Made by a program: the position numbers and the translations under genes. From positions 62,001-126,000 of the forward strand of contig CAJNDT010006011.1 in NCBI GenBank assembly GCA_905221615.1: DNA of 64,000 nt. Reading direction: 5' to 3'. This stretch comes from Symbiodinium sp. CCMP2592. Taxonomy: Eukaryota > Sar > Dinophyceae > Suessiales > Symbiodiniaceae. This document shows positions 4,918 through 29,319 of the stretch, one piece after another; the stretch's first letter is position 1, and every line of letters begins with the position of its first letter. The notes under the pieces were generated by a model, which saw nothing but the letters and a program-made list of their open reading frames with translations, made no database searches and was not told the origin of the DNA.

Positions 4918-5165
4918 TGAAACCATAAACCTCTAAAGGGGTAGCTCTAACAGGTACCTACAGCAATGGCTGCATGCTCATACATATACATTCCGCTGCC
5001 CATTGGCTCACAGTGGTTTTACCATATTGAGACAAGACAAGCTCTCCTTGCGTAGCAAGACAAAACAACTACTGTCCGTGTGCAGGGCGCTGCCCTTTGA
5101 TCCTTAGGGAATAACTGGTCATACACCTCCTCACAAGGAGTATCCCTTGGGGGTGTATCGGCACA
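4918..5165 (+). repeat. 5' LTR of copia copy 1
   Basis: 248 bp, TG...CA termini. It contains several short hairpins: cttgc/gcaag at 5051-5063, agggc/gccct near 5085-5097, and caagg/ccttg near 5134-5150. The last stem is kept in copy 2 although its loop and neighbouring bases differ, which hints at a structured RNA end. A spliced-leader-like stretch lies at 4991-5011. It matches the 3' LTR at 20589-20836 throughout by eye. Confidence 0.92.
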
Positions 5166-5171
5166 GTTTTC

Positions 5172-5184
5172 TGGTAGCGGAGCC
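5172..5184 (+). promoter_or_regulatory. tRNA primer-binding site, copy 1
   Basis: Six bases after the LTR end lies tggtagcggagcc. Its complement ends in ...GCTACCA, i.e. a mature tRNA 3' end including CCA, which is where minus-strand DNA synthesis is primed. The A/U-rich acceptor end GCUA-CCA resembles eukaryotic initiator methionine tRNAs, a common copia primer, but the exact tRNA cannot be named without the host tRNA set. The identical site occurs at 21280-21292 in copy 2. Confidence 0.8.
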
Positions 5185-5267
5185 CGGAAAGGGCCGCCCG
5201 CCTCACAAAGTCCGCTACAGCGGTCGGCCTCGCCGAACGCTTAACCAAGCGGATAAGAGGCAGCACA

Positions 5268-8200: not shown

Positions 8201-11200
8201 AACATGTGAGAGCTCCTTCAAGAGCAAGATTTCTGGTTTAAGATCAGAGACTTTCGGTGATCTCACCTTCGTAGATCACGGTGAGCTTCCAATTCCCGGC
8301 AAGGATAGTCGCTTAGTATTTCTTATTCTCTATGATGGAGCAACAAACTTGTTGACTGCCGAAGTAGTCCAGGATAAAGAAGAACATACTACAATGTCGA
8401 TTATGAATGACTACTTTGAGAAATTTCAGATCAACCCAAAGGTTGTAGTTGGAGATCAAGCATTCATGACTCCAAAAATGGAGGCTTATTACAATCGGCA
8501 GAATATCAAGCCTGTGGCAACAGGACCTGGAACACCATGGCCCAACAGGGCCGAAGCTGCTGTAAGATTGCTGAAGCATCAGATTAAGCTCATACTTCAG
8601 ATCCTGAAGGATGGTGACCCGCAGTATAACGGAATCACCATGAAGTATGGCAACCTCGTTCGCCAAGCATGTTTGGCAAGAAACTCTTCGATTACCTACG
8701 GAGGAGTTACTCCTTTAGAAATGGCCTTTGGAAGGCGTCCTCGAGATGTTATAACACCAGAGAACGCTGATCCCAATCAGTTGACAGGTAATCCAACTGA
8801 TACGGAAGTCACTGCGAGAGCCATTAAGGAGCTTGCCAACAGGGCTTACCAAGAGGCACGCCAATCTGATGATCTGCGTAGAGATCTTGCAGCCAGACTG
8901 TCAATGACCCAAGGACCTTTCTCTTTGGGAGATAAGGTTTTCTACTGGTCAGAAGATAAGTCTAAGATTGGATCCACTGGGTCCAAACATGGATCTTGGC
9001 TAAAAGGAAAGGTGATCTCCGAACTCGGAGGATCCATGGTAGGTGTGGATCTTGGAACACGCATCGTCCGCGTCAATATCTCAAAACTGAGGAAAAACTA
9101 TGACATAACATCTGATGTGGAGATTCCTCTCGCGCCTGATGAGGAAACTCTGACGTCAGAAGGTTCTGACCACGCAAGTTGCATGGTCACCTTCGATGCT
9201 TCCCTGCAGTCGACAGACCTAACGATTCCACATCAAGAGTGTCACTGGCAGGTCACCAGCACTGGGAAGATTGACTTCCTAGAACTCTACGGCGGATCTC
9301 CCCGCATGAGTCACAAAGCTGCCCTGTCAGGTCTGCGAGTAGGTCAGCCAGTCGATTTGCGTAGCGGTCTAGATCTTGAGCAACCGCAAGGTCGCTCCAA
9401 TCTTCTTAGGATCATCAAGGAACAAGAACCTACTATTATTGTTATGTCACCGGACCATTCTCAGTGGTCTAGCTGGTACTCACAGTGGAAGAAAGGCTCT
9501 GCCAAGAGACTTTCTGTTTTAAAATTCTGTGAATCGGTCGCAGACCACCAAATGAAGCTCGGACGTTACTTTGTTCTTGAGAACCCATACTACAGCAGGC
9601 TCTGGTCTTCACCAGAAGCAAAACGCCTGTTTTCTAATCATAAGATCAGCTATGAGGTCTGTAACCTACAGGCCTATGGCATGAAAGATCCAACAGGATA
9701 CTATGAATCGAAATCCTCGATTTTTATGCACAACTTGCCACCGCAAGTTTTAATTCCTCTCCAGAGGCATTCTGCCAAAACGAAATCTCCAACATCTCCA
9801 CCAGGAGACGAAAAGGGTATTCAAGGCTACGGTCTTAAAACGAAACTCGCACAAGTGTATCCTTATGAATTCTGTGAGACCTTTGCCTCGTGTTTGGCAA
9901 GATTCCTGAAACGAGATGCGTATGCATCTCATCTGTCTTTAGTCACAGACATACTAGAATACTCTGGAGATGAATGCCTCCAGGGACTTTCGGAACTTCT
10001 TGATCAGGAGTATTCACTTTTGACAACAAATCCTCTCAAGGATTCAAAACTCCTGCAAGATCCGAAAATCAGATCACTTGTTGCTAGAGTAAATTCTTTA
10101 TCGAGTAAAACTGAATTACCATTGCATCATTCCAAACCATCACCGTCCCTTGATGCCTTGGTGTCAGACATTACTCGCCTTAGATCAAGACTCTTACCAG
10201 GGTCTGGTTTCGAACAGTGTACTCTATACAGAGGTACATTTGGAACAGTCAAAGCACTCACCAGTGTAACTGATGGCGTTCTTGTCTTTTGGAACAAGAA
10301 AAAGCCCAATTCGACTATGACGTGTTGCTTGCCGCACCAGGTTTCCTGGAGCAAGGTACACCCATCAACCTTCTCGGGGGTGCTATTCCAGATGACAGGC
10401 GGCAAGACTTCACCGTCCGTGCGAACACCGCCGGATGTAATCATGTCGGACGAAGAGGTTTCGCCGTCAGACCCGTCAGAACCAATGAGCACTAATCGCT
10501 CACGGATCACATCTGACGATGTTTCTATGCCGGAACCAGATCAGCCGATGCCTCCCGGCACGCCGCCGTCGCGTCCTCCTCCTCCCATACCTCCACCGCG
10601 ACTACCGGCCGTTTCCTCCGATGAGCCCGTGGCTCCTGCTCGGGCTAAGCCTCGCGTGCATCCGCCTCCTCGCGTTCCGTCTCCTCGGCGTCTGGGGGGT
10701 GATGTGTCGCCAAGGTCTTCATCGGAAAGGAAAGTTTCGCCACACAAACAGAAATCACCTTCACAGGTGCCGACACCAAAACCTAAACCGAAGGCACATC
10801 CACAGGGACCCATTCTTCCGTTACAACAAGATGAAGAAGACACTGAAGAAGAACTGGTCCCAGACGACCCCGGACAACCGTCCGCTCCTCCTCACACTTC
10901 TGGTTCACCAGAACCGGAGAGCGATGCCGAGTCAGAAAACACAAGGTATTACTCTGATGAGGAAGGTGACTTGGTCGTAGATGAGAAGGACTGGGTCCTT
11001 CTCACAGAAGAACAGAAACTGTGCAGTAACACAGGTTCTTTCTCCATGCCTCGGTACATGCATGGCGGACCCGTAGACATCAGAGAGGTAACATCAAGAG
11101 TGAGGTCAGACCGAACACGGTATAAACCCACCAAAAGGTTCCGATCTGACATTCGTGAAGAGTACGATCTTCTCACGGAAGAGGACAAGGCCTTATCCCT

Positions 11201-13136
11201 AAGTTCCCCCAGGAACTCAGCGAATCTAACCCAGAAGGCACAACGGAAGGAGGCAACCGCCAAGGAAAAGCGTGAGATGAAGAAACAGTTTGATGAAGCG
11301 AAAGCAGCAGAATATCAGAGCTGGCTAGACAATGATGTCTTTGAGCTCGTCGATACACGGAAACTCGGAAACATCCGAAATTATGTCACTGGTCGATGGG
11401 TCCTGACTCTAAAAAGAGACAAGGACGGAAACTTCCTTAAGTGCAAGGCCCGATGGGTCCTGAGAGGTTTCCAGGATCGACAGAAGGACATTCAGCAAAC
11501 TGATAGTCCTGCTGCGAGTCGCCCAGGTTTCCGCTTAGCGATTCAACTAGCAGCTAACAAGCTGTGGAATCTGACACACATCGACCTAAAGACTGCTTTC
11601 CTGCAGGGTGAAGCCTATGATGAGTCGAGAGACATAATCTGTCAGATTCCTCCTGAAGCAGGTTATCCTTCCTACATTGCAGCGAGGATGAAGAAACCCG
11701 CTTATGGACTTAACGATGCACCTCGAAGATGGTGGAACATCGTTGATAAGGCACTCCTGTCTTATGGCCTGGTGCCAACCCGTGCGGATCGCTGTACATA
11801 TGTTCTGTATGGTAAGAAGTCTGCAACAGCAGATGCTGAGCTCAAGAAGTCTCAGCCAAAGACCATGGAATCAGCGATTGACTATCTCCTAGATCCCATA
11901 GCAGGCAACAATGCCAAGGGTAGACAGGTACATGGAGTAGTCTGTTTGCATGTAGATGACCTGTGCATGGCCGGTGATGACACCTTTCGTAAGGCCGTGA
12001 TTGAATCGATCAAAAAGGAATTTGCAGTAGGTTCTGAAGACACGAATGATATCATGTTTGTAGGACAGAGATTAGTCTGGAAGGATGCTACAGCATCAGT
12101 GCCAGCACATATCTCAGTAAATCAGAACCTAGCTGTTGAAGCTCTAGAAGAAATTGTTTTTGACAAGAAGCTCAACAATGAGCAACAATGCACACCACAG
12201 CAGCACACTGCTTATAGAAGTGTTTTAGGACAGATCAACTGGCTACAAAGCCGGACTCAAGCTCACATCTGTTATCGCTTCAGTCGGTGTGCGAGCAAGG
12301 CTGCCAAGCCTACTATCGGTGATATTCGAGAATTGAACAAGCTTGTTAGGATTTTGAAGTCTACCGAAGTAGAATTGCGTTTTTGGCCGCTGAAAGGAAA
12401 TCTCAGAATCCTCGGTTACCCTGATGCTTCCTACAGGAACAATGATGACAAATCATCTCAGAGAGCACATGTTATTTTCCTTGCTGAAGATCGAAATCCA
12501 AAGCTAAAGGGAATGAAACAATCAGCAGCAGCTGCTTCTTCCAAGAAGAACGATTTCTCTGAATCCTCTATTAAGGAAACATCCTCGAGAGGTAGCCTGG
12601 TGGATTATGAGTCTCACAAGATTACGACAACCACAATGTCCACAACAGTGGCAGAGCTTAACGCACTGATGCGTTGCTTTGGTACCTGCCTGTTCCTCAA
12701 GGGACTTTGGGCAGATCTCTCATCAGAGACCGTACCTATACATATCAGAACAGATGCGAACAATCTTGTGACAACAGCAGGCACGACACACCTTCCAGAG
12801 CAGAAGGAAACTCACCATCTTATACAGATGCTTCGTAAGGAATCCAACTCTGGATCTTTAGATGACCTAGCTCATGTAAGCTCGAAGTACTGCCTAGCTG
12901 ATGCATTAACAAAGCATTCGGCGCAACCTGATGAGCTTATCAAGGCTCTGGAAACAGGAAATTTACCAGAAACAGACATTCATCCACCCTTCCGTGAACT
13001 TCTTCAACATAAAGCTTTCACTGTTCGGTGGATCATAGACAACCTTAAGAATGCCGCTACAGCGGTAGCCTTCCTTGGAATTGATGTCTCAACAGAGATT
13101 TACCGATTATTTTACTGCCAAGGAACATGGTGGTAG
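5268..13136 (+). pseudogene. gag-pol of copia copy 1, two frameshifts
   Basis: Starts at the first ATG after the primer site (cagcacaATG). Order of parts: Gag-like N-terminus; an Arg/Lys-rich then Gly/Lys-rich basic region (about 6170-6600) in place of a classical zinc knuckle; aspartic protease with ILDSGCT at 7039; a C-x2-C-x7-H-x5-C cluster near 7527; integrase HHCC zinc region near 8070-8200 and DDE core (D at 8273, D at 8453, E at 8552); methyltransferase-like insert about 9270-9720; Pro/Ser-rich linker; RT with HVDD at 11949-11960 (YVDD variant); RNase H with DASY, AELNAL, TDANN and ADALTK; stop TAG at 13134. Compared with copy 2 there is one extra base near 6585-6592 and one missing base near 8225, so the middle third is displaced by one frame. 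Copy 1 also lacks 18 bp (in frame) near 7497. Confidence 0.92.
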
Positions 13137-13176
13137 TCTTGTTTGCTGGTAGCACAACCATGTGCTGGATTTTCTA

Positions 13177-13213
13177 TTTAGACTGTTTTCGTCTAAAAGA
13201 AAATTTGTGTCTG
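13177..13213 (+). promoter_or_regulatory. Hairpin plus internal polypurine-like motif, copy 1
   Basis: Between the gag-pol stop and ORF2 lies a perfect 7-bp stem (tttagac / gtctaaa, 13177-13197) whose right arm runs into taaaagaaaatttgtgtctg (13194-13213). That 20-mer is repeated with one mismatch 2 bp before the 3' LTR (20567-20586), where LTR elements keep the plus-strand primer (polypurine tract). It may be a second, central polypurine tract as in Ty1, or an RNA signal for ORF2 expression. Copy 2 keeps both the stem and the motif (29320-29357). Confidence 0.6.
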
Positions 13214-13359: not shown

Positions 13360-16300
13360 ATGAGCACACGATCAAACTTCCGTAGCCGTGATGGACACGC
13401 CCTACCCAGGGCAGTACAGGCGTACCATGAGCGACATCCACACATGGATAGCTCGTACCCCGAGTCTCGTCGGGAAGCATCACGTCGACACACCGAACAC
13501 GGTGGACACCGATTTCACAAACGTGAGAAAAATCACGAGCCTCCATACATTTACATGGGTCACCAACAGGTGTTCAATCCGCGTCCAAGAGATCTTGCTG
13601 AACTGATCTCACGATGTGGCCATGCGAGTCGAGCAAGGCTCACTCCAATCTCCAGACATGGAGTCAGGCTCTACGAAGGAGTCCTTCAAGGACCATGGGA
13701 CAACAGTCCCCTTTTATACTGGGATAACAACGTGGGTAATCACGCTCGTGATCCACGCCAGTTTTGTACGATGCTTGCACATCACCTTCAGACTGGCCTC
13801 CCACAGGAGGTAAAACAATGTGTGAGTCTTGATGCATCTGGAGAATATGACTATTCCTCCTCAGTGCCAAGACTGGCAGAGGTAACAGGTCTCTCACCAG
13901 AGATGTGCTTCCACATTCTTTCCAAGACCAACAGAGTCGGAAGGTGGTTGGCACACTCAACAAGACACCTTCAGAACCAGCGCCAAGATCTCTTTGCTGG
14001 CCAACACAATTATCTTCTGGACATGTCCAAGTTGGCCGATGCAGAGCTCGCACAGTATACACCACAAGAGATCGCGCTTGGTGTCCTCCTCAACACTAAG
14101 TCCAGGTTCGTGGTCACTATGGTTTATAACCAAGATGGCAAGGCCGAAACAACAGATGCCGCCGTTACCATCCCACCGGATGCAAATGTGCTGACCATGA
14201 CCAAACTTTTCCTCTCGGCAGTGGGAGGACACGGTTCACGACGAACTCTATCAAGAGTTGAAGAACCAGATCCTGAAGAAGAGAGGCCAAGGTCACACAT
14301 GACCATCTCAGACTTCATGGCAACGGGGAGCAATCCTGTGCAGTCCCATGCACAGCGTCTCTCCACTAACGCGCCAAGGCCCGTAGGCATGGAAGATTTT
14401 GTTCGACAGAACAACCCTTGTTACATCATGCATGCCACGGACTTACAGGCATTATCCTCAATCCTGAGGCATGGTCTGGTACCATCAAACCTCCTATCGC
14501 AGGTGGTTACCTCACCAGGTCTTCAAGCTCTCGTGAATGAAAACAGTCGTTCCAACAGGGACACTGTTCAGTTTTCAACGCTAAACCTGGCGAATCCTAA
14601 TCCGACTTTGCTGCGTGCCAACAAGGCACTGCTTCTAGTATTCGACGCAAATAACGTAGTGAACGAAGTCACAAACATGTGGCAGTCGCAAGCAGGGATG
14701 TTTGCTACACCAGAGGTAGTGCATGCCCGTACTCTTAGCGCCGTATTCGCACCCTCTGAACCACTCTGGGTATCATCGCAATACGATGAGCTCAAGAGCA
14801 TCGGACCATGGTGGGCAGACCACTGCTCCGAACAGATGCCGTCAGCGACTTACGAGTCGAAGAAATGGTGCGCAAATTACGGCCAAGAGATCGAATCGAC
14901 ACTTCGGAAGGTGTCAAGGCGAAATCTGCCTCCAGAGCCTCCCAAGGCCAGATCTTCTCACAAGAAGTCTTTCTCTCTGCCAAATACAGAGGCTGACACA
15001 GCTCCAAACCTGGAGCAAACCGCTTCTGCAGGTGAGGTACCTCCGAAAACGGAGACTACTGCAAAGGAGATCCATCCGAGATCCAAGCTCGCCCGGCAGG
15101 CCGAGGCAGACAAGGATCCGGACAGTCTTATGGGACAGCTCTGGAACTCCGACGGCACTAGAAGCGCCACTGAAGTTCTTAAGATAACTACAGGTCACAA
15201 ACCTCCAGAACCTGTTCAGGATACTTCTGCCAACGCAGTTCCTCCCAAGGAAGAATCTTCTGGAACAGAGACGGAACCTGAGGAACCAGATCCTAACCAG
15301 GATTGTGACGAAGAATCAGACGTTGAGTCGGCATCAAGCGAAAAGAGCGAAAAGAGCGAAAAGAGCGAAAAGAGCTCAAAATCTTCGTCATCCTCAGAAC
15401 TCCGAGTTGATGTTAACCCGTCTCACAAGACGAACTCTGCACCTGCAGCGTCAGAGGAGAAGAAAGAATCTCCCACGGAAGAGATCACAGAGAAACTTGA
15501 GAAGGTCAAACTTGACCAACCAAAGCCTGAAACAGAATATGTTCAGAGTTCAGACGAAGAGCCAAGGAAACCAAAATCTCCTAAAAAGGAGAAGGAAAAA
15601 TTCCTAGTTCTCTTCGATCCTGAAACAGAAACTTATTATCGAGTCAACAGAAGCAAGCTCAACCTCGAATACGAGGAGCCTGCTGATGAGGAAGACCTCG
15701 TAAGAGAACATGAGCGCATCAGCGCTCGAATTCGAGAAAATACCAAGCACCGAATCTCGAAGTCACCGTCTAACCCGGCTATGCAACAGGAAATGCAAGA
15801 GAGAATCTGGGTTAGTCGATGGAATCGAAAAATCCGAAGTCCACTCATGATCAAAGATTCTGAGGCTCCTGACGAAGAGGAGTGGGACAGACCCAGAGAG
15901 TCGGCATCTTCCTCCTCTGCACCTCCTAACAAGGAGAGATTTGTAGGAGTACGCAGGACAGCCATGAGCCTTAACCAAAGGATACGAATGTTGCCTCGAC
16001 CAGACAATCCTCTCTGCGATCTCTGCAAACAGCCTACAGGCTATTTTTGCTATTCCTGTGGTACGATTGTATGTGCAGATTGTCGACTTACCCCACAGGG
16101 TAAACAACGGATGTGCGAGTGCGTCTTGCCAATCGATTGCCTTGAGACCTCCAAAGTGAGAGCAGGAATGACCTCAGAAGAGCGTCAGTTTTTATACGAG
16201 GCCATCCTCACACATGAGGACGTAGATTTGGCAGTCCAGAAAATCAACATGTATTGCGACCACGCAAGAAGTCTGTTCGAAAAGGACCATCCAGGCGTTG

Positions 16301-18552
16301 ATCCATGCAGCCTTGATGATATTAGGAACAATCCTCCGAATACGTATGACAGCTCCACAGAGGCTCCAACCCTGGAGGAATATAAGAGCATTAACAAGAG
16401 TCACATCAACATCAAGGACTCTAGAACAAGCCATCCGGCTTCTTTTCTCTCTCTTACTGGCTACGAAGACAAACTGGTGCTCGACGCACATTACGAGATA
16501 GTTCGCAATAGGATGGCCGGTGTTAACGAGAAGAGAGAATACATTGAAGGCTCAAACCCAGACAGCGTATCGCTAAACCTAGTGGTATTCAACTGGGGAA
16601 ATATGGATCGAGCGCCGGTGCCCGCAGGGAATCCCAAAAAGAAGCTCAAACCTGAGAAGGGATTCGATTATCACCCTCTTATTGACATGTGCTTCAACAA
16701 TTCAGCTCATATTACCCTCGTACTCGAGGCAGGAGCACTTGCGTCAGAGTATTCGATCGCAACCATGCGACAACATGAATACAGGGGGATGCTAATCCAT
16801 TCTCCTCCCAAGGAGCCTGAGGCACCCTCGATGTATATTGGAGTCAAGGGTGACCCAACAACAGACATCGCTCTCGTCCACCACTTTTACCGTCATCGAA
16901 CAATGAAGCCTAAGAATGGTGGTCCCAAGAAGCGACTGTGGGCATGCCACGGTGCGGTATGCCGCCTCACCTTTGGGTACCACAGTACCATCCCAGAGGC
17001 AAAAGAATGGGTCCACCCATATTCTGGCCAAAGGATGACGAGAGACGAGTTCATGCAGATTATCGGATATGACCCACTCAAGGGCAAAAATCCTGACAAG
17101 GATGGACCCACTGATGGCTCTTACCTCTCACCAGAGGCGTGCCTGACACTGTCGAACCTCGACCCCTCGCCGATTCTCTGTGAATGGAACGGCCATGTCG
17201 AGGGTGATGAGCCACCAGAGGAAGACTTTGAGTCATACGCAGAGATCTTCTCACAAGAAGCATCAAACGATCTTGACGAGATGTGGTGTACAAAAGGGCC
17301 TTACAAGGTCATCACCATCGCGATCGTCCATTTCAACTCATTCATGACTCATAAGGAAGAACAGAGACGCGAACTGGTGAACGCGTTCCTCAACGAGATT
17401 CTCCCTTTTAAACCGGATGTAATAGCGGGAGATCTCAATAATATTGCGTCGAGGCTCACCTTAAAAGGTGGAGACGTTCACCCGCGAAACAGTTTGTTTT
17501 CTCTATACCTGGAGAAGAAACTTGCAGCATTCAACAAAATAGCAGGAAGGCACTCACAAGTGCGACATCTTTGCTTGAACAACTCCGACCAGCACAGACT
17601 GGCACGTGCAGATCGTCTACCGGCGGACCCGGCGAAGAAAGTTGCTGACCTTGACTGTATCAACAGTTATATCCTTGACTGGAGTAAAACGCCGCACACG
17701 GCGTCACCTAGTCCAAGAGATGTTACACCTGCCGCCGAAAGAACATACTGGGAGCGAATCTCAGATATGTGGCAGGACATGAACAATAACAGGGATATTG
17801 ATATCCGTCTGTTTGTCTCAGTCAAGCAGTACTATTCAACTTTTTCTAACCTTGACCTATGGTTGAGTCCTTCTGACAAAGATTGGCACAGCCCTTTGGG
17901 CTTCACGATACAACCAATCCTTACAAAAGGGAAACACAACCGGTCAGATGCCCAGGTTCAGAAGATCGCTGACAAGCGAAAGGCTTACAAGCAGCGTAAT
18001 GCTGAATACTGGGGTTACAACGATTCATTCGTTTACTCATCCGGCAACAGCTGGTACGACAAATCGCAACCATCAGGTAGCCATCACAGATACGGAAGAT
18101 TCTGGGAATGGCCACAGCCTGAACGTCCCAGCGAGCCTGAAGGTCCTCCTCCAAGAAGGAACCAGGAATCATCGTCCTCTTCACAACAAGATCTACCAAG
18201 ATCAAGGTCCAGGCCTCAAAGAACCAATATTGTTGACAAGCTCAACATGTCTTTGGAAGAGCTGGATGGACTAGAAGAAGAACCGTCACCAACAAAAAGT
18301 GACATCGAAGAACACGAAAGAGAAACATCAAACTTGATGTCTGCTCAGAGAGATGAAGAGGAACAAGAGGACGAATCCTCCAGCCGGAGAAGAAGAAGGA
18401 AGGCATCGCGTCCACCGTCTGCTCCGAGCGGCAAGGCACTCAGAACAGCTGCTACAGCAGCGGGGTTGTCGGGCTGGTTCGGACACCGCAACCGAGGTGG
18501 AGCGAACGCAGAGTCTATCAAGACTGATGAAACTTCACTTCCAACTCACTAA
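13360..18552 (+). CDS. Copia ORF2: Tpt1-like ART + Zn module + EEP nuclease
   Basis: A 1,730-codon open frame starting ATG AGC ACA CGA, not part of normal copia elements. Residues about 125-475 follow the order of Tpt1/KptA RNA 2'-phosphotransferase: an N-terminal lobe (DPRQFCTMLAHHL at 131, TPQEIALG...SRF at 235-250), then a catalytic-lobe pattern HATDLQALSSILRHGL (358-373), NRDTVQFS (399-406), LLLVFDANNVV (about 425-435). Residues 480-880 are acidic/Ser-rich and disordered. An eight-cysteine module lies at 886-921 (C-x2-C-x7-C-x2-C-x4-C-x2-C-x10-C-x-C). Residues 1075-1515 have EEP-nuclease landmarks: VFNWGNMD (N1078), LVLEAG (E1123), IVHFNS (H1324), AGDLNN (D1358, N1360), DWHSPLGF (H1510). 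A Ser/Arg-rich tail follows. The stop at 18550 is created by a base deletion; copy 2 continues. Domain calls are motif readings, not searches. Confidence 0.8.
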   Translation: MSTRSNFRSRDGHALPRAVQAYHERHPHMDSSYPESRREASRRHTEHGGHRFHKREKNHEPPYIYMGHQQVFNPRPRDLAELISRCGHASRARLTPISRHGVRLYEGVLQGPWDNSPLLYWDNNVGNHARDPRQFCTMLAHHLQTGLPQEVKQCVSLDASGEYDYSSSVPRLAEVTGLSPEMCFHILSKTNRVGRWLAHSTRHLQNQRQDLFAGQHNYLLDMSKLADAELAQYTPQEIALGVLLNTKSRFVVTMVYNQDGKAETTDAAVTIPPDANVLTMTKLFLSAVGGHGSRRTLSRVEEPDPEEERPRSHMTISDFMATGSNPVQSHAQRLSTNAPRPVGMEDFVRQNNPCYIMHATDLQALSSILRHGLVPSNLLSQVVTSPGLQALVNENSRSNRDTVQFSTLNLANPNPTLLRANKALLLVFDANNVVNEVTNMWQSQAGMFATPEVVHARTLSAVFAPSEPLWVSSQYDELKSIGPWWADHCSEQMPSATYESKKWCANYGQEIESTLRKVSRRNLPPEPPKARSSHKKSFSLPNTEADTAPNLEQTASAGEVPPKTETTAKEIHPRSKLARQAEADKDPDSLMGQLWNSDGTRSATEVLKITTGHKPPEPVQDTSANAVPPKEESSGTETEPEEPDPNQDCDEESDVESASSEKSEKSEKSEKSSKSSSSSELRVDVNPSHKTNSAPAASEEKKESPTEEITEKLEKVKLDQPKPETEYVQSSDEEPRKPKSPKKEKEKFLVLFDPETETYYRVNRSKLNLEYEEPADEEDLVREHERISARIRENTKHRISKSPSNPAMQQEMQERIWVSRWNRKIRSPLMIKDSEAPDEEEWDRPRESASSSSAPPNKERFVGVRRTAMSLNQRIRMLPRPDNPLCDLCKQPTGYFCYSCGTIVCADCRLTPQGKQRMCECVLPIDCLETSKVRAGMTSEERQFLYEAILTHEDVDLAVQKINMYCDHARSLFEKDHPGVDPCSLDDIRNNPPNTYDSSTEAPTLEEYKSINKSHINIKDSRTSHPASFLSLTGYEDKLVLDAHYEIVRNRMAGVNEKREYIEGSNPDSVSLNLVVFNWGNMDRAPVPAGNPKKKLKPEKGFDYHPLIDMCFNNSAHITLVLEAGALASEYSIATMRQHEYRGMLIHSPPKEPEAPSMYIGVKGDPTTDIALVHHFYRHRTMKPKNGGPKKRLWACHGAVCRLTFGYHSTIPEAKEWVHPYSGQRMTRDEFMQIIGYDPLKGKNPDKDGPTDGSYLSPEACLTLSNLDPSPILCEWNGHVEGDEPPEEDFESYAEIFSQEASNDLDEMWCTKGPYKVITIAIVHFNSFMTHKEEQRRELVNAFLNEILPFKPDVIAGDLNNIASRLTLKGGDVHPRNSLFSLYLEKKLAAFNKIAGRHSQVRHLCLNNSDQHRLARADRLPADPAKKVADLDCINSYILDWSKTPHTASPSPRDVTPAAERTYWERISDMWQDMNNNRDIDIRLFVSVKQYYSTFSNLDLWLSPSDKDWHSPLGFTIQPILTKGKHNRSDAQVQKIADKRKAYKQRNAEYWGYNDSFVYSSGNSWYDKSQPSGSHHRYGRFWEWPQPERPSEPEGPPPRRNQESSSSSQQDLPRSRSRPQRTNIVDKLNMSLEELDGLEEEPSPTKSDIEEHERETSNLMSAQRDEEEQEDESSSRRRRRKASRPPSAPSGKALRTAATAAGLSGWFGHRNRGGANAESIKTDETSLPTH

Positions 18553-20288
18553 CCAGTGAGCAGACTTCTCCGTCTTCAGCATCGCGTGGAATGTGTTCCT
18601 GCTGCTAATGGGCTTACACTGGATGTGGAAGCAGATTACCAGGCCTCCTATCAGATGTATGGAGCGCCAACAACCAAAATCAAAAGCAGCAGCGAACCAA
18701 AGAGTTCCATTCCTCGAACCCGAGGATGAACCGCAGACGCGTGAACCTTTAGGACCCAACAGGGTCAATTCCGGAGAAACAACTGATCTGCGACCTATCT
18801 GGCATACTTCCCGAAGCGAAGTCTACCATCTCTCAGACAGCTGTTACCAGCTCAAGCAAGCAAGAGATGTTTGCAGGAAGGTGCTGTGCAAAAACTGCCT
18901 CCATGCAGTACAAGTTGCGGAGATTCGAAGGAACGATCCTTTTCAAAGAGGTGATACACGTCCACGTGGCACCGAAAGAGACATTGAGCGCTTCCAGACC
19001 TACGATGATGCAAGCACCACTCCTCATATGACGCAATTATTCAAAGATGCCTTGCATGCACAAATGGCCGAAGAAGCCATGCAGGTTACCTATACATCGA
19101 TCCCCAAGGGATCTTCGGCAAAGGCCAAGGGTACATCTGCACTTTCAAGTGCTGCATCGTCGTCAGCGCCCAAGGCAATGCCACCAGGGCCTAACAAGGC
19201 AAACATGTCACCTCCACCTAAGAGTCCTCCGCCAAAGGCGAAAGGAACAGTACCTTCTGATCCTCCAAGACCAAAAGGTCCTACCAGAAGAGGAGGTCAA
19301 AATCGGCGCATTCAACGAAAGGCAGCTAGAGAAGCCCACAACAGTGGACTCTGCACCTATGCAGACGCTGCACTTAACGAAGCCAATCAAGGCCAGGCAA
19401 TTAACGTTACGTGCCGAAACATGGCAGCAAGACACGTCAGCTCTATCGATGCAACGGTAGAAGCAGCCGGCAGTTTACACAACGCGTGCTACAGCACGTA
19501 GAAACATATGATGAAGAGGAACCGTGGAGCACGGAGTTCCTACCAATCGTGGAGGTCCTATTCAGGAACTTAAGCGGCGACGAAACAACTGTCATACATG
19601 ACAATCAAACGGTAACTATGCCTCTTGCGAAATACACAGACCTCCTCAGAATCGCACAAGCATTGCGAGCTCTATCCAGAGAGACAAGGAGGAAAGAAAG
19701 GAACATCTTGACACCATCCAAGATACTCTATCCAGAGTGGAAATCCTTCTAACAGCACTGAAGGACTCAAGGACAGTCTTTAACCAATTGGTCCATTCCT
19801 CACTAGAGATAGAGCGAAGAAATAACAATCTCAAAAATGTCCTCGAGACACTCTTTGACGACCAAAGCTCTGAGGAAGACCAGTCAGAATCTGACAATGA
19901 AGAAGTCCTAACTCCTTCTGCAGCACAGTACTGGAATAGCCTTTATGCCCACGCCTTATCTCCTTCAGGAGATGAAAGTGAAAGATCATGGGCGTCCTCA
20001 GACGGACAGCTTGAAAGAAGAAGGGCTGAACGGGCAAAGGCTAAGCAGCCGCAACCGGCAAAAGCCAAGGCAACTCCAGTCAGCTCACAAGCTGCTCCAA
20101 AGGCCGAGCCAAAGGCGACAACATCCAACCATGGATATGATACTGCAGACGCCGCCTTCACCAGGGCTGAGAACAGATTACTCGGAATCTTTTCAAGTTC
20201 CGAAGAAGACCACTCAGACCCGGATGAGCCACATCCGAACGTCTACGCTCGAGCCTATGATCCAAACCTGGATCCGAATCTGAGATAA
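18553..20288 (+). pseudogene. C-terminal part of copia ORF2, copy 1, frameshifted
   Basis: This continues ORF2 as judged against copy 2, but single-base deletions near 18543, 18562, 19470 and 19668 spread it over successive frames (visible open pieces 18593-19501, 19411-19752, 19737-20288). It encodes a hydrophobic segment (VFLLLMGLHWMW, about 18590-18630), an H-x4-C...C-x2-C motif (YHLSDSC...LCKNC, about 18822-18900), a Pro/Lys-rich linker, a basic patch (RRGGQNRRIQRKAAR) and a predicted coiled coil near the end. It finishes NLDPNLR-stop at 20288. The reading is intact in copy 2, so decay here is recent. Confidence 0.85.
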
Positions 20289-20588
20289 GAAAATTCTCAG
20301 AGTTTCACAACAGTGAATCACAAAGCTCTAACAAGAGCACAATGAAGGGCTGCATAATTCGGTAGAAGAACATTACCAGACCTGATCTTGTACAGATGAT
20401 CTCTCTGACCAACATGCATGAGTGTGTGCAAAAGGAGTGACCTCAACAGTGTACTTCAGTGCTATACATAGCATAAACAATATGCTGTTTTTATCATGAG
20501 TCCAAACTCCGCAACTGTGACAGTGGGCATAACAGTATATGTGTGAATGTGCGGCCATGCTTCCGGTAAAAGAAAATTAGTGTCTGTT
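20289..20588 (+). other. 3' untranslated region of copia copy 1 with polypurine-like motif
   Basis: 300 bp without a gene, almost identical to 36416-36715 in copy 2. It ends with taaaagaaaattagtgtctg (20567-20586) two bases before the 3' LTR, the position expected for the plus-strand primer. The A/G core (aaaagaaaa) is 12 bases from the LTR rather than directly abutting it, which is unusual. Confidence 0.6.
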
Positions 20589-20836
20589 TGAAACCATAAA
20601 CCTCTAAAGGGGTAGCTCTAACAGGTACCTACAGCAATGGCTGCATGCTCATACATATACATTCCGCTGCCCATTGGCTCACAGTGGTTTTACCATATTG
20701 AGACAAGACAAGCTCTCCTTGCGTAGCAAGACAAAACAACTACTGTCCGTGTGCAGGGCGCTGCCCTTTGATCCTTAGGGAATAACTGGTCATACACCTC
20801 CTCACAAGGAGTATCCCTTGGGGGTGTATCGGCACA
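20589..20836 (+). repeat. 3' LTR of copia copy 1
   Basis: 248 bp, TG...CA, matching the 5' LTR at 4918-5165. It carries the copy-1-specific 'cctcctcacaaggagtatccc' variant. Copy 2 has a different variant in both its LTRs, which proves that each element has its own LTR pair and that they did not arise by sharing an LTR. Confidence 0.92.
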
Positions 20837-21024
20837 GGGGGGGCGGGAGGGGGGGGCTAGGGGGGGGGTGAGGGGGGGGGAGGGCGGGTGGCAGTTGGAA
20901 TGGGTTGTTTTTGAGTGGATTTTTTGGAATGGGTTGTTTTTTTGGATTTTCAAACCTTTCCCCCCCCTCCCTAGTGAGGTGGGGTGGGGTGGGGTGGGAT
21001 TGGGTGAGGTGGGGTGGGGTGGGG
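20837..21024. repeat. G-rich / GGGGT microsatellite spacer between elements
   Basis: 188 bp. Long G-runs come first, then two copies of 'ggaatgggttgttttt', then a run of ggggt/gaggt pentamers (about 20980-21024). No gene. It supplies the 5-bp target duplications of both flanking elements: GGGGG for copy 1 and TGGGG for copy 2. Confidence 0.8.
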
Positions 21025-21273
21025 TGATTCCGTAAACCTCTAAAGGGGTAGCTCTAACAGGTACCTACAGCAATGGCTGCATGCTCATACATATACATTC
21101 CGCTGCCCATTGGCTCAAGTGGTTTTACCATATTGAGACAAGACAAGCTCTCCTTGCGTAGCAAGACAAAACAACTACTGTCCGTGTGCAGGGCGCTGCC
21201 CTTTGATCCTTAGGGAATAAACTGGTCATACACCTCCTAACAAGGAGCATATCCTTGTGGGTGTATCGGCACA
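21025..21273 (+). repeat. 5' LTR of copia copy 2
   Basis: 249 bp. It differs from its own 3' LTR in the first bases and by loss of two bases at about 21116 (ctcaagtgg). Both LTRs of this copy share 'aataaactgg' and 'aacaaggagcatatccttgtg', distinguishing them from copy 1. The caagga/tcctt(g) hairpin is kept by this variant. Confidence 0.9.
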
Positions 21274-21279
21274 GTTTTC

Positions 21280-21292
21280 TGGTAGCGGAGCC
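21280..21292 (+). promoter_or_regulatory. tRNA primer-binding site, copy 2
   Basis: tggtagcggagcc, identical to the site in copy 1 and again six bases after the LTR. Complementary to a tRNA 3' end ...GGCTCCGCTACCA. Confidence 0.8.
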
Positions 21293-21375
21293 CGGAAAGG
21301 GCCGCCCGCCTCCTAAAGTCCGCTACAGCGGTCGGCCTCGCCGAACGCTTAACCAAGCGGACAAGAGGCAGCACA

Positions 21376-24300
21376 ATGTCGAGCTCGCATAGCGAAGCCG
21401 ACGGCAGTTCCCAATCCTCCGGGGGATATGAGAACGAAGAGACCTCCCAAGGTCCAGCCACTTATGTCGCACAGTCATATGCAACATCTGAACGCATGCT
21501 TGCATCATTAGGCATAACGCCCAAGATCGCGCCTGCCTATGATGGCACCACCTCGTGGTTTGAGTATGAACAGTTGATTGACGACTGGTGCGACATAACA
21601 ACGCTGGATGACACCAAAAGAGGTCCGTCTCTCAAGACGAGGCTCTCCGGATTGGCCGCAGTACAAAAGGAATCACTCAACCGAGAAAGGCTTGCAGCCC
21701 CAGATGGAGTAGATTACTTCAAGAAGAAGCTGCGTCCATTTTTCGTGAAAGGAGAACAGTACGTTTTCCTGTGGCGTTTCCTCGGCCTATTCAAGGCATG
21801 GAAGGGCAACCAAGACTTTGTGACTTGGATTGCCAAGTTTGAGATCGTGCTACAGCGCGTGAAAAACTCATGGATGGATCTCTTACCAGAGATAGCTCTG
21901 GAGGATGCCCATCCAGATTTCATGCAGGCTGTGCAGGCAGATCAGACCTTCTTGCGCCTACAGGATGCAACCGAGAGAGACACATACGCCGCACGTTTCT
22001 TCGAAACATGGAACAAGGAACGCCTTGATAATCATCGAAGAGCGTTTTCTCTAAATGATAATCTCCTAGCTCTCCTCTTCCTAGTGCAGTCCGACCTAAA
22101 TGAGATGCAACGTGAGAGGTTGGTAACAGCATTGACCAACCAAGGTCACCGAATTGAGACCTACACGTACCCTGTGGTACGGCAGACCATGTTCGATCAG
22201 TTCTCAACGACCAGAACTGGTCTGCAGGATCCCAACATTCGACACTCTTCTCACAAGAAGGACCGCCATGGAAGGAGAGACCAACGCCGCAAACGCGGAG
22301 GTCGAAACTTCCTCATCCTCGATCAGGGGGAATACGACGGAGTCGATGGATTCTGGCTCCAAGACGAAGACACCCTTGAGGAAGGCTTTCTTGCCGCCGA
22401 GGATGAAGAAGCTGTCTTCTGGACAGTTGATGACCATGAGGCCTTCGGTGCAAGGAGATTCAAAAAGGGAAGAAGACCAAGAATGCGTCCCGGATCACCG
22501 GGAAGAGCAAAGGGTGGCAAGCGAAAAGGACGTGGCCGTTTTAGGTCATACCGCGGAAAAGGGAGAGCCAACCAGGCAGAACATCATCCAACTGATTCCA
22601 GCTATTTCGGTAAAGGTAAAGGAAAGGAAAAAGGAAAAGGTGGAAAAGGCAAAGGAAAAGGAAAGGACAAATCAGATAAAGGAAGCTCCTTCAAGGGCTC
22701 AAAAGCAAAAGGCAAAGGTAAGGATACAGCTAAGTCTGCCTCCTTACAAGGAGACCAAACTGGATCTCCACAGCCCTATGAAAGTTCCACCGCACCGAGC
22801 TGGGATTCATGGTATGAGGACAGTTATTATACTGACTCCAGTTGGAATTATGCCGCTTATGACGATCAAGCGTCTTATACATACTATGCATCACAAGCCT
22901 CACGAAGAAAAACACGGAGAAAGAAGAGAAGAAATCAAGCAGGATCATCAGGTAGAGGCACAGATCCGAGCGCGCACCAAGAACCCGTGTACAACTCATC
23001 AGTGAGTTATGTGCCCCAGGTCTTTGAACCATCCGAGGGGCAAGGTGTTGAAACTGCAACAGCGGTGTTTCCGTTGCAGCACACCGTCCTATCTGCTCTC
23101 ACAGAGCGGATCAATCTTGATAAGAGCCCTACCTTTGTCATACTTGACTCAGGGTGTACTAGGGCTATGGGTTCCCGCTATGCGGTGAACAGGCTTATCA
23201 AGGCCGTGAAGCAACATGCCCCAGGCATGATTGACTTCACTTTCTCACCTTCGAACACGAAGTTCTCTTTCGCAGATAGTGAAACAGCTCTTATCAAGGA
23301 GCGTGTAACTCTATGGTTCAACACAACTCCAAGAAGAGATACAACCATAGAAGTTCTGGATCAGGGGAGAGTTACCATTTTGTTCTCCATCGAACAGATG
23401 AGGAATCTAAGAATGACCCTCGAGTGTAGTCCCACAGCTGACCTAGCAACGTGTGAAGCTTTCGGTTTGTATAAAACCCCTCTTCCGATTAGTACCAATA
23501 ACCATTTGGTATTGGACCTTCTAGGCTTCACTTCCGCCAGGAAGTATCTCCCTAAATCAGGTACGTCGTTCAATGCGACAGAGACTGCTCTAGGAGCTAG
23601 GAAGCCAAAGGAAGAAGGAAGACCTTATACTAGGATCCCGGAAGGTCGCTGTCCAGCTTGCGCAGGACAGAAAAGGGCTCATACGTACCTCAAAGGTTGC
23701 GACAAGGCACCTGAGGGAGCAGCTGATCCACCACCGAAGAGGATTTCAGGTAAGAAGAAGCCTCTTCCATCTGATCCGGCAGAATCATCTGCCAAGAAAC
23801 CTGATCCACCAGAACCATCTGGTGATGCTCCTGAGCCTTCCGAACCATCGGAACCATCATCAGGCTCTAGAGACAAACCTGCAGAATCATCTGCACCGCA
23901 CGAACCTCCAGAAGAAGAAAGAATTGAGGTTCCACCTGCGAAGACAAAGACTCCAAAGGGTCTTAAAAACCTTCTGAAGAAAACCCGCAAATATGCGGTC
24001 AAACCTCCTGTTGAAGAGAAGTCTACAGTCCCAGGAGCTGATGACGGGACGGAGGTAAGACCACTTGAGTCAAGAGAATACCCGGCTCCTGGTACAGACT
24101 CACCTACAGGTGAAGAGATTGTTGCGGAACCATCGCCATCTCTTCCCATTGCTCTTCGCAGGATTCATGAGAAGCTTAAGGACCCTGTAGAACTCTATAA
24201 GCTTCACCTTAAGCACCGTCATATGAGTCCGGATCAGTTCAAGCGACGCACGAAAGCCTTACAGATCCCAAAGGAGATATATGAGCTATATGACCAACTG

Positions 24301-27300
24301 GTCAAAAAGTGTTCAGCCTGTCAGGAAAACGTGAGAGCTCTTTCAAGAGCGAAGATTTCCGGTTTAAGATCAGAGACTTTCGGTGATCTCACCTTCGTAG
24401 ATCACGGTGAGCTTCCAATTCCCGGCAACAATAGTCGCTTAATATTTCTTATTCTCTATGACGGAGCAACAAACCTGTTGACTTCCGAAGTAGTCCAGGA
24501 TAAAGAAGAGCATACTACAATGTCGATTATGAATGACTACTTTGAGAAATTTCAGATCAACCCAAGGGTTGTAGTTGGAGATCAAGCATTCATGACTCCA
24601 AAAATGGAGGCTTATTACAACCGGCAGAATATCAAGCCTGTAGCAACAGGACCTGGAACACCATGGCCCAACAGGGCCGAAGCTGCTGTAAGATTGCTGA
24701 AGCATCAGATTAAGCTCATACTTCAGATCCTGAAGGATGGTGACCCGCAGTATAACGGAATCACCACGAAGTATGGCAACCTCGTTCGCCAAGCATGTTT
24801 GGCAAGAAACTCTTCGATTACCTACGGAGGAGTTACTCCTTTAGAAATGGCCTTTGGAAGGCGTCCTCGAGATGTTATAACACCAGAGAACGATGATCCC
24901 AATCAGTTGACAGGTAATCCAACTGATACGGAAGTCACTGCGAGAGCCATTAAGGAGCTTGCCAACAGGGCTTACCAAGAGGCACGCCAATCTGATGATC
25001 TGCGCAGAGATCTTGCGGCCAGACTGTCAATGACCGAAGGACCTTTCTCTCTGGGAGATAAGGTTTTCTACTGGTCAGAGGATAAGTCTAAGATTGGATC
25101 AACTGGGTCCCAACATGGATCTTGGCTAAAAGGAAAGGTGATCTCCGAACTCGGAGGATCCATGGTAGGTGTGGATCTTGGAACACGCATCGTCCGCGTT
25201 AATATCTCAAAACTGAGGAAAAAATATGACATAACATCTGATGTGGAGATTCCTCTCGCGCCTGATGAGGAAACTCTGACGTCAGAAGGTTCTGACCACG
25301 CAAGTTGCATGGTCACCTTTGATGCTTCCCTGCAGTCGACAGACCTAACGGTTCCGCATCAAGAGTGTCACTGGCAGGTCACCAGCACTGGGAAGATTGA
25401 CTTCCTAGAACTCTACGGTGGATCTCCCCGTATGAGCCACAAGGCTGCCCTGTCAGGTCTGCGAGTAGGTCAGCCAGTCGACTTGCGTAGTGGTCTAGAT
25501 CTTGAGCAACCGCAAGGTCGCTCCAATCTTCTTAGGATCATCAAGGAACAAGAAACTACTATTATTGTTATGTCACCCGATCACTCTCAGTGGTCTAGCT
25601 GGTACTCACAGTGGAAGAAAGGCTCTGCCAAGAGACTTTCTGTTTTAAAATTCTGTGAATCGGTCGCAGACCACCAAATGAAGCTCGGACGTTACTTTGT
25701 TCTTGAGAACCCATACTACAGCAGGCGCTGGTCTTCACCAGAAGCAAAACGCCTGTTTTCCAACCGCAAGATCAGCTATGAGGTCTGTAACCTACAAGCC
25801 TATGGCATGAAAGATCCAAAAGGATACTATGAATCGAAATCCTCGATTTTCATGCACAACCTGCCACCGCAGGTTCTAACTCCTCTCCAGAGGCATTCTG
25901 CCAAAACGAAACCTCCAACATCTCCACCTGGAGACGAAAAGGGTATTCAAGGCTACGGTCTTAAAACGAAACTCGCACAAGTGTATCCTTATGAATTCTG
26001 TGAGACTTTTGCCTCGTGTTTGGCAAGATTCTTGAAACGAGATGCGTATGCATCTCATCTTTCTTTAGTCACAGACATACTAGAATACTCTGGAGATGAA
26101 TGCCTCCAGGGACTTTCGGAACTTCTTGATCAGGAGTATTCACTTTTTACAACAAATCCTCTCAAGGATTCAAAACTCCTGCAAGATCCGAAAATCAGAT
26201 CACTTGTTGCTAGAGTAAATTCTTTATCGAGTAAAACTGAATTACCATTGCATCATGCCAAACCATCACCGTCCCTTGATGCCTTGGTGTCAGACATTAC
26301 TCGCCTTAGATCAAGACTCTTACCAGGGTCTGGTTTCGAACAGTGTACTCTATACAGAGGTACATTTGGAACAGTCAAAGCACTCACCAGTGTAACTGAT
26401 GGCGTTCTTGTCTTCTGGAACAAGAAGAAGCCCAATTCGACTATGACGTTTTGCTTGCCGCACCAGGTTTCCTGGAATAAAGTACACCCATCAACCTTCT
26501 CGGGGGTGCTCTTCCAGATGACAGGCGGCAAGACTTCACCGTCCGTGCGAACACCGCCGGATGTTATCATGTCGGACGAAGAGGTTTCGCCGTCGGACCC
26601 GTCAGAACCCATGAGCACTAATCGTTCACGGATCACATCTGACGATGTCTCCATGCCGGAACCAGATCAGACGATGCCTCCCGGCACGCCGCCGTCGCGT
26701 CCTCCACCTCCCATACCTCCACCGCGACTACCGGCCGTTTCCTCCGATGAGCCCGTGGCTCCTGCTCGGGCTAAGCCTCGCGTGCATCCGCCTCCTCGCG
26801 TTCCGTCTCCTCGGCGTCTGGGGGGTGATGTGTCGCCAAGTTCTTCATCGGAAAGGAAAGTTTCGCCGCACAAACAGAAATCACCTTCACAGGTGCCGAC
26901 ACCAAAACCTAAACCGAAGGCACATCCACAGGGACCCATTCTTCCGTTACAACAAGATGAAGAAGATTCTGAAGAAGAACTGGTCCCGGACGACACCGGA
27001 CAACCGTCCGCTCCTCCTCACACCTCTGGTTCACCAGAACCGGAGAGCGATGCCGAGTCAGAAGACACAAGGTATTACTCTGATGAGGAAGGTGACCTGG
27101 TCGTAGAGGAGAAGGACTGGATCCTTCTCACAGAAGAACAGAAACTGTGCAGTAACACAGGTTCTTTCTCCATGCCTCGGTACATGCATGGCGGACCCGT
27201 AGACATCAGAGAGGTAACATCAAGAGTGAGGTCAGACCGAACACGGTATAAACCCAACAAAAGGTTCCGATCTGACATCCGTGAAGAGTATGATCTTCTC

Positions 27301-29279: not shown

Positions 29280-29319
29280 TCTCGTTTGCTGGTAGCACAA
29301 CCATGTGCTGGATTTTCTA

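What the first reader, a model, noticed from the sequence alone, without database searches (positions are those of the whole stretch)
13360..20288. Copia element with a giant second ORF joining ART, zinc, EEP, membrane and coiled-coil parts
Ty1/copia elements normally carry only gag-pol. Here about 6.9 kb after pol encodes one multi-domain protein (about 2,300 codons in the uninterrupted reading seen across the two copies). A Tpt1/KptA-like ADP-ribosyltransferase fold combined with an APE-like EEP nuclease in an LTR element is a combination I know of from no described element. Conservation of the whole frame in two copies argues that it is functional cargo, not random capture.
Basis: partly seen in the sequence, partly recalled or inferred. 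Interest (0 to 1): 0.92.

Follow-up and report, generated by a model that had tools for sequence, protein, structure and literature searches.

The report
Giant retrotransposon carrying RNA-repair-like enzyme ORF
A 16-kilobase jumping gene in a coral-symbiont alga carries, besides its usual replication genes, a huge conserved second protein that contains a relative of an RNA-repair enzyme, and it lands mostly in runs of G.

Summary
Window 4918-20836 and 21025-36965 are two recent Ty1/copia LTR elements (15.9 kb, TG...CA LTRs, 5-bp target duplications). Between pol and the 3' LTR each has a 6.9-kb ORF2, broken in both window copies. In the host genome (1.1 Gb, Symbiodinium-like) 34 of 66 scored copies keep a frame of 2,310-2,325 codons, and 15 intact copies give pN/pS 0.16: ORF2 is under purifying selection. 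Relatives 55-66% identical occur in other Symbiodinium; two database models join ORF2 parts to copia pol.

[quoted passage not shown] A B-box-like zinc finger is marginal. The EEP domain rests on motif order and a weak profile match; both AlphaFold2 models failed.

Two facts go beyond the finding. First, 298 of 343 non-5' LTR ends run directly into NGGGG (background 0.4%): the element inserts in G tracts, in one preferred orientation. Second, canonical Tpt1 domains recur in this genome (149 listed matches), including the third ORF of a 10-kb LINE-like element. My paper searches showed no Tpt1 in retrotransposons. Function is inferred: probably NAD-dependent RNA-end processing.

The parts
4913..4917 (.). 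5' target site duplication GGGGG (copy 1)
4918..5165 (+). 5' LTR, copy 1, 248 bp, TG...CA
5172..5187 (+). primer-binding-site-like TGGTAGCGGAGCCCGG, 6 nt after the LTR (tRNA not identified; initiator Met suspected from recall)
   Evidence: sequence
5268..8241 (+). gag and protease part of gag-pol (frame broken in copy 1; one frame in copy 2, 21286-27768)
   Evidence: no Pfam match to this part
8169..13136 (+). pol: integrase (rve, weak), RVT_2 reverse transcriptase (11331-11810), RNase H region
13195..13213 (+). AAAAGAAAATTTGTGTCTG, repeat of the motif before the 3' LTR; at -165 or -164 from the ORF2 ATG in 20 of 20 fetched copies
13360..18552 (+). ORF2, first open piece (1730 aa from ATG)
13927..14859 (+). 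Tpt1/KptA-like ADP-ribosyltransferase domain; tetrad R202 H203 R249 R419 (from ATG 13360)
16003..16086 (+). B-box-like zinc motif
   Evidence: 6.7e-5, 23.4 bits, cut-off 24.1
16570..17904 (+). putative EEP (endonuclease/exonuclease/phosphatase) domain: NWGNM, LVLEA, VHFNS, GDLNN, DLDCIN, DKDWHSPL
   Evidence: motif order (motifs recalled); no Pfam match
18560..19501 (+). ORF2, second open piece: hydrophobic stretch (18563-18634) and a Cys-rich stretch (18824-18901)
   Evidence: read from sequence; positions
19602..20288 (+). ORF2, third open piece, acidic C-terminus
20568..20586 (+). AAAAGAAAATTAGTGTCTG before the 3' LTR (possible polypurine tract region)
20589..20836 (+). 3' LTR, copy 1, identical to the 5' LTR
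20837..20841 (.). 3' target site duplication GGGGG (copy 1)
20837..21024 (+). stretch between the two elements, 54% G, with G runs at both ends
21025..36965 (+). second copy of the element with both LTRs, target duplication TGGGG

Best explanation
This is a young, high-copy 16-kb Ty1/copia retrotransposon of a Symbiodinium dinoflagellate. Its second gene makes a 2,307-residue accessory protein with an NAD-dependent Tpt1/KptA-type domain, a B-box-like zinc site, a probable EEP phosphodiesterase and a hydrophobic stretch. Shown: the element, the intact and selected ORF2, the Tpt1 resemblance with all four tetrad residues. Inferred: the Tpt1 domain acts on 2'-phosphate or phosphorylated ends of nucleic acid (the element's RNA, its primer tRNA or its cDNA), and the EEP domain trims or nicks a neighbouring phosphodiester, so that the element mends or protects RNA or DNA ends during replication or against host nucleases. 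The hydrophobic stretch may hold this at a membrane. I put the element-plus-selected-ORF2 part at 0.95, Tpt1-like ancestry at 0.85, EEP at 0.6, and the end-processing role at 0.35.
For: LTRs, 5-bp duplications and RVT_2. 34 of 66 copies with full frame. pN/pS 0.156 over 15 of 20 fetched copies. Pfam PTS_2-RNA in 3 of 3 domain pieces, best 2.1e-4. Profile-profile with 7 Tpt1 sequences P 6.4e-5 (reversed 0.25), with 11 P 1.4e-6 and 9.6e-7, against 0.058-0.059 reversed. R202, H203, R249, R419 in 20 of 20 fetched copies, both window copies and P0001-P0003; R-H to R spacing 47, in E. coli KptA 48; the tetrad is essential in Tpt1 (PMC6333775, passages). Phages and a few RNA viruses carry KptA, read as RNA repair (PMC9503650, passages). 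Canonical Tpt1 is carried by a LINE-like element in the same genome.
Against: The Pfam score stays under its curated cut-off (19.5 against 26 bits for the window's domain piece; E 0.061 in the whole first piece of ORF2). The profile match covers the NAD lobe; the N-lobe alone gives P 0.051, no better than some reversed or unrelated controls (0.051-0.063). Compared with KptA the domain has about 25, 48 and 23 extra residues between motifs. EEP has no Pfam match, its N-half gives P 0.5, and SDH is replaced by D-W-H. Profile searches of solved structures found neither domain. Both structure models failed. Copies for pN/pS were the best-scoring ones over the first 667 residues, and only intact frames were used, which lowers pN. 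No expression or activity data.
Confidence: 0.6

Rival explanations
1. ORF2 protein aims or assists integration: the zinc and putative EEP parts bind or nick G-rich DNA, and this gives the element its strand-oriented insertion into G tracts.
For: 298 of 343 non-5' LTR ends run into NGGGG; 15 of 18 fetched 3' flanks are G-type and 2 are C runs, so orientation is not random; 5-bp duplications lie in the G run.
Against: Integrase of other copia elements sets targeting without such an ORF (recalled); no copia relative without ORF2 was examined for G-tract preference; EEP activity is unproven.
Confidence: 0.2
2. ORF2 protein acts on the host: the ART domain ADP-ribosylates host protein or RNA to blunt silencing or nucleases, as phage ARTs do.
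For: Most viral ARTs are fast-evolving and suggest conflict roles (PMC9503650, passages); the ORF2 domain is diverged, with HAT for HGT and about 48 extra residues before it compared with KptA.
Against: The four residues with which Tpt1 holds the RNA phosphates are kept, which argues for a nucleic acid substrate.
Confidence: 0.2
3. ORF2 is a structural or envelope-like protein in which captured enzyme domains no longer work.
For: It has a hydrophobic stretch and sits where env sits; pN/pS is somewhat higher than in gag-pol between the window copies (0.22-0.32 against 0.17-0.18); P0001 and P0010 carry a hydrophobic leader-like stretch before the common start.
Against: All tetrad residues, and the EEP-like motifs, are invariant among the intact fetched copies except one exact motif in L016.
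Confidence: 0.15
4. ORF2 is a neighbouring host gene or chimaeric assembly, not part of the element.
For: None found.
Against: Inside paired LTRs with duplications in both window copies, repeated in 66 scored copies, and joined to copia pol in database models P0003 and P0005.
Confidence: 0.01

Closest known systems
Ty1/copia (Pseudoviridae-type) LTR retrotransposons
   Same: LTR ends TG/CA, 5-bp duplications, gag, integrase before RVT_2 reverse transcriptase and RNase H
   Different: 15.9 kb instead of about 5 kb (recalled), a 2,307-codon second gene after pol, insertion mostly in G tracts
Tpt1/KptA RNA 2'-phosphotransferase (PF01885)
   Same: Order of the motifs, Arg-His-Arg-Arg tetrad, spacing of the first three tetrad residues, GGHGS for QGHS and HAT for HGT
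   Different: Below the Pfam cut-off, about 25, 48 and 23 extra residues between later motifs, embedded in a giant multi-domain protein
Symbiodinium DNMT-carrying LINE and DIRS elements (PMC5890265)
   Same: Same genus, retroelements with captured, conserved enzyme domains
   Different: Those carry cytosine methyltransferases in LINE/DIRS; the paper says Copia there lacks DNMT and has no word beginning Tpt1, KptA, phosphotransferase or ADP-ribosyl
Bdelloid rotifer LTR elements with enzymatic ORF3 (PMC5408684)
   Same: Extra ORF besides gag and pol encoding an enzyme (DEDDy exonuclease, GDSL esterase), shared between element classes
   Different: Different enzymes, animal host
KptA-carrying phages and RNA virus polyproteins (PMC9503650)
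   Same: Selfish genetic element carrying a KptA domain
   Different: No retroelement: 0 hits for words beginning transposon or retroelement or retrotransposon (listing)

Membership tests
Ty1/copia LTR retrotransposon | paired LTRs with TG/CA ends and target duplications | tested here: met
   both copies
Ty1/copia LTR retrotransposon | RVT_2 reverse transcriptase downstream of integrase | tested here: met
   RVT_2 2.5e-17 at 1055-1214; rve 0.023 at 34-123 (weak, under its cut-off)
Ty1/copia LTR retrotransposon | gag-pol as the only genes | tested here: not met
   ORF2 present; taken as a variant, since extra ORFs are known in LTR elements (PMC5408684)
Tpt1/KptA (PF01885) | score over Pfam's curated cut-off | tested here: not met
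   19.5 bits against 26 for the window's piece; 13.8 bits in the whole open piece
Tpt1/KptA (PF01885) | Arg-His-Arg-Arg tetrad | tested here: met
   R202 H203 R249 R419; tetrad defined in PMC6333775
Tpt1/KptA (PF01885) | profile similarity | tested here: met
   P 1.4e-6 and 9.6e-7, reversed 0.058-0.059; covers NAD lobe only, N-lobe P 0.051
Tpt1/KptA (PF01885) | fold: winged-helix lobe plus ART lobe | tested here: inconclusive
   model failed, pLDDT 37.5
Tpt1/KptA (PF01885) | NAD-dependent removal of RNA 2'-phosphate | not testable with these tools
   needs biochemistry
EEP (PF03372 and kin) | Pfam or profile similarity | tested here: inconclusive
   no Pfam match; profile P 3e-4 for the C-half, 0.5 for the N-half
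EEP (PF03372 and kin) | ordered N, E, H, GDxN, D, DH residues | tested here: inconclusive
   order present and kept, but the final motif is D-W-H, and the list of motifs is recalled
EEP (PF03372 and kin) | four-layer alpha/beta fold | tested here: inconclusive
   model failed, pLDDT 29.7
B-box zinc finger (PF00643) | score over cut-off | tested here: not met
   23.4 against 24.1 bits

The most novel reading that the evidence does not exclude
Dinoflagellate retrotransposons of two classes (a copia LTR element and a LINE) have each taken up a Tpt1/KptA NAD-dependent RNA-end enzyme, and the copia element uses its giant ORF2 protein to process nucleic acid ends and to insert, in one preferred orientation, into G tracts. 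That would make RNA-repair chemistry a recurrent tool of retrotransposons and give a new kind of sequence-directed LTR integration.
Probability: 0.25. Interest if true: 0.88.

Novelty: new variant of a known kind. Interest (0 to 1): 0.74.

Why it matters
The wide presence of Tpt1/KptA where no substrate is expected has been called a longstanding conundrum (for bacteria; PMC6333775, passage). A selected Tpt1 inside retrotransposons would point to a substrate made during retrotransposition and would make that question testable. The G-tract preference is one of the sharpest sequence preferences that I can recall for a copia element, and its polarity can be used to find what directs the integrase. 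Both bear on how dinoflagellate genomes became so large and repeat-rich.

Tried and rejected
AlphaFold2 of both domains with 6 and 8 aligned sequences: pLDDT 37.5 and 29.7, so no fold search was run. Pfam on EEP halves, up to E 10: only Stealth_CR4 at 0.031 in one of five pieces, taken as spurious. Profile searches of solved structures with the 3-row alignments: Kelch and unrelated chains only. Relatives in prokaryote genome contigs and viral contigs by six peptide patterns: none. Three ExoIII-type chains as EEP yardstick: P 0.053, reversed 0.14, so own-genome EEPs were used instead. Host-gene or chimaera origin of ORF2: rejected on LTR pairing and copy number. Random insertion with non-templated G tailing as the cause of the G flanks: thought unlikely, since the tracts are irregular, lie on both sides in the window, and carry target duplications. 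My first reading of the Tpt1 N-lobe put LQT at the Arg-His place; TRHL is better by spacing and is where hhalign's (non-significant) N-lobe match falls.

Not done because the genome search stayed busy: count of C-run flanks genome-wide and a search with P0001 for more distant families.

Paper searches for prior reports. One search found no paper; the others listed only their top 6 to 15 papers, and none of those listings points to Tpt1 or G-tract insertion in retrotransposons. The heat-activated copia paper of S. microadriaticum (PMC5776459) is not held, so I know only its citation and one sentence about it in PMC11453091.
Full report
WHAT IS THERE. The window lies in a 1.098-Gb unnamed assembly (G000). 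Its ORF2 is 95-96% identical to Symbiodinium sp. CCMP2592 proteins P0003 and P0004 over their best stretches (37% and 29% of the query), so the host is probably a Symbiodinium close to that strain. Two LTR elements lie head to tail: 4918-20836 and 21025-36965. The LTRs are 248-250 bp, start TG and end CA; the pairs are 248/248 identical, and 246 identities with 3 mismatches and 1 gap; each element is flanked by a 5-bp duplication, GGGGG and TGGGG. Pol has RVT_2 at 2.5e-17. After the pol stop (13136) and 223 nt, ORF2 begins at ATG 13360.

ORF2 IS REAL. In the window it is broken in both copies. In the genome the first 667 residues gave 1,862 first-look candidates, of which 66 were scored, all 98-100% identical over the query; 34 of 66 have a stop-to-stop frame of 2,310-2,325 codons and 2 read longer. 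Of 20 copies fetched, 15 have 2,304-2,307 codons from the same ATG; the other five (L014, L015, L018, L021, L028) were dropped from the rate count. Over the 105 pairs of the 15, pN is 0.0054 and pS 0.0343, ratio 0.156. By segment: 0.39 (residues 1-100), 0.14 (101-510), 0.12 (511-860), 0.05 (861-940), 0.10 (941-1050), 0.16 (1051-1540), 0.08 (1541-1740), 0.23 (1741-2050), 0.16 (to the end). The copies were chosen by protein score over residues 1-667 and by intact frame, which lowers pN; residues beyond 667 were not used in the choice by score and show 0.05-0.23. Between the two window copies the ratio is 0.22-0.32 in ORF2 and 0.17-0.18 in gag and pol; pS itself is higher in ORF2 (0.12-0.19) than in gag-pol (0.06-0.08), so the two halves may have different histories (one RNase H piece aligned over only 15 codons and is not used).

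RELATIVES. Three searches of 5.8 billion proteins gave 10 proteins (5, 3 and 2; two of the searches scored only the best 8,000 candidates). P0001 (1,900 aa, 56% over 99%) and P0002 are near-full relatives. P0003 joins a pol stretch, and P0005 joins RVT_2, to ORF2 parts, so the linkage is seen in CCMP2592 and in S. microadriaticum models. P0007 is from Symbiodinium sp. KB8. The four with an organism name (P0003, P0004, P0005, P0007) are all Symbiodinium; six have no name. None was found in prokaryote genome or viral contigs.

THE TPT1-LIKE DOMAIN. Pfam PTS_2-RNA matches 3 of 3 domain pieces, best 2.1e-4, the window's piece 0.0011 and 19.5 bits, under the cut-off of 26; in the whole open piece of ORF2 it is 0.061. 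A profile of 7 Tpt1 sequences (E. coli KptA, three database chains, three bacterial loci) gives P 6.4e-5, reversed 0.25. With four sequences of this genome added (L037, L038, L040, L050) it gives P 1.4e-6, and with a larger query 9.6e-7; the reversed query gives 0.058-0.059, and the EEP profile 0.39-0.59. The match lies on the NAD lobe. The essential Tpt1 tetrad (Arg18, His19, Arg68, Arg121 in the Clostridium thermocellum enzyme; PMC6333775, passages) has counterparts R202-H203, R249 and R419, numbered from 13360. They are present in 20 of 20 fetched copies, in both window copies and in P0001, P0002, P0003; P0009 and P0010 keep the first three and end before the fourth. The step from R-H to R is 47 residues, in E. 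coli KptA 48; later steps are longer by about 25, 48 and 23. The N-lobe by itself is not significant: P 0.051, while reversed or unrelated controls reach 0.051-0.063; its local alignment falls on TRHL against LRHK. I take the domain as a diverged Tpt1 relative, not as a proven member.

THE EEP-LIKE DOMAIN. The order N (NWGNM), E (LVLEA), H (VHFNS), GDLNN, DLDCIN, DKDWH[SN]PL is what I recall of EEP enzymes, and all six are present in 18 of 20 fetched copies; L014's frame stops before them, L016 lacks the exact LVLEA string. Against it: no Pfam match, and a profile match limited to the GDLN neighbourhood: P 3e-4 for the C-half, 1e-3 whole, 0.5 for the N-half; reversed 0.36-0.82. That EEP profile has 19 sequences: 17 of the 18 stretches (L065 dropped for a stop), L049's and E. 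coli ExoIII. The model failed. A LINE EEP in the same genome also has a changed last motif, SRHFPL. I hold EEP at 0.6.

OTHER PARTS. B-box zinc motif at 16003-16086, 6.7e-5 but just under cut-off. A hydrophobic stretch (DFSVFSIAWNVFLLLMGLHWMWKQ) and a Cys-rich stretch, read from sequence. AAAAGAAAATTxGTGTCTG stands both 164-165 nt before the ORF2 ATG (20 of 20) and before the 3' LTR (18 of 20; in L015 the contig ends and L021 reads N). It could be a second polypurine tract, as in Ty1 (recalled), a trans-splice acceptor for ORF2, or the scar of the former 3' end before ORF2 was gained.

G-TRACT INSERTION. The exact LTR end CTTGNGGGTGTATCGGCACA occurs 739 times. 396 are followed by GTTTTC, the 5' LTR junction, which leaves 343; 298 of these (87%) are followed by NGGGG. 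NGGGG begins at 0.40% of positions in 31.7 kb of the window outside the elements and their next 100-120 bases, and no 20-mer there has 14 or more G. In the fetched copies, of 18 with a visible 3' end 15 are G-type, 2 are CCCCC and 1 is GTTTTC followed by G. So both the site and the strand are chosen. The genome-wide C-run count could not be obtained, and the 45 remaining ends were not sorted. That G-rich stretches act as landing pads would explain why two copies stand side by side here, 188 bp apart with G runs at both junctions. Whether integrase or ORF2 does this is open.

TPT1 IN OTHER ELEMENTS. A Pfam search of the same genome with PF01885 had 1,550 candidates and 152 matches, best 8.6e-50; of the 149 listed, all are over the cut-off and 104 lie in open frames of 660-680 aa (counted). 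In four contigs (C890, C980, C459, C5312) neighbouring copies lie 10.1-10.6 kb apart. One such unit (L049, L050) holds a 304-aa ORF, a 1,576-aa ORF with RVT_1 (4.8e-22), UCH ubiquitin protease (3.3e-8) and a weak EEP (0.0082), and the 665-aa ORF with canonical Tpt1: a LINE-like element with Tpt1 in a third ORF. Other copies of the unit were not opened. A second group has canonical Tpt1 in other long frames (six loci read: L037, L038, L039, L040, L042, L044); I did not show that these are retroelements. So Tpt1 is common in repeated frames of this genome, and the copia ORF2 domain is a distant relative.

KNOWN AND NEW. Extra enzymatic ORFs in LTR elements are known (PMC5408684, abstract and outline), and Symbiodinium LINE and DIRS elements carry methyltransferases (PMC5890265, passages). 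KptA is known in phages, a few DNA viruses and a few RNA virus polyproteins (PMC9503650, passages). I saw no report of Tpt1 in a retrotransposon or of a G-tract copia element in the listings; that library lacks most subscription papers. I therefore call it a new variant of a known kind, with two unusual features.

MECHANISM. Shown: element, copies, selection, Tpt1 resemblance, G-tract sites. Inferred: ORF2 protein handles phosphorylated ends of RNA or cDNA with NAD, with the EEP-like part cutting or trimming beside it. Rivals: targeting factor, host-directed ART, structural protein.

Noticed in passing
window 4913-4917, 20837-20841, 21020-21024, 36966-36970; genome-wide: The element inserts in G tracts: 298 of 343 non-5' LTR ends are followed by NGGGG, with G on the element's strand; 2 of 18 fetched copies show C runs.
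   Followed up: partly
L049, L050 (G000:C890): A 10.1-kb tandem LINE-like unit with a weak EEP match, RVT_1, a UCH ubiquitin protease and a third ORF with an ART-like HGT motif and a canonical Tpt1 domain.
   Followed up: partly
L037-L048: Canonical Tpt1 domains in other long repeated frames, type of element not determined.
   Followed up: partly
window 9276-9596: Between integrase and RT, pol has a stretch that reads like a worn cytosine methyltransferase (FLELYGGSPRMS, IVMSPDHSQWS, FVLENPYYS; motifs recalled); Pfam does not see it (positions).
   Followed up: no
window 13195-13213 and 20568-20586: Nearly the same 19-nt purine-rich motif stands before ORF2 and before the 3' LTR, in the copies where visible.
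   Followed up: partly
L017, 3' end: This copy keeps GTTTTC, the 6 nt between LTR and primer site, after its 3' LTR, as if cDNA end trimming had been skipped.
   Followed up: no
window 54248-59508: Frames with a YADN reverse-transcriptase-like stretch and a tyrosine-recombinase-like stretch, as in DIRS elements; no Pfam match at E 0.01 in the two frames scanned (54248-55924 and 57787-59505); the YADN frame 55716-57974 was not scanned.
   Followed up: no
window 45140-46693: Frame with methyltransferase-like motifs (GTPCVAFSPQG, HECS; read by eye), no Pfam match at E 0.01.
   Followed up: no
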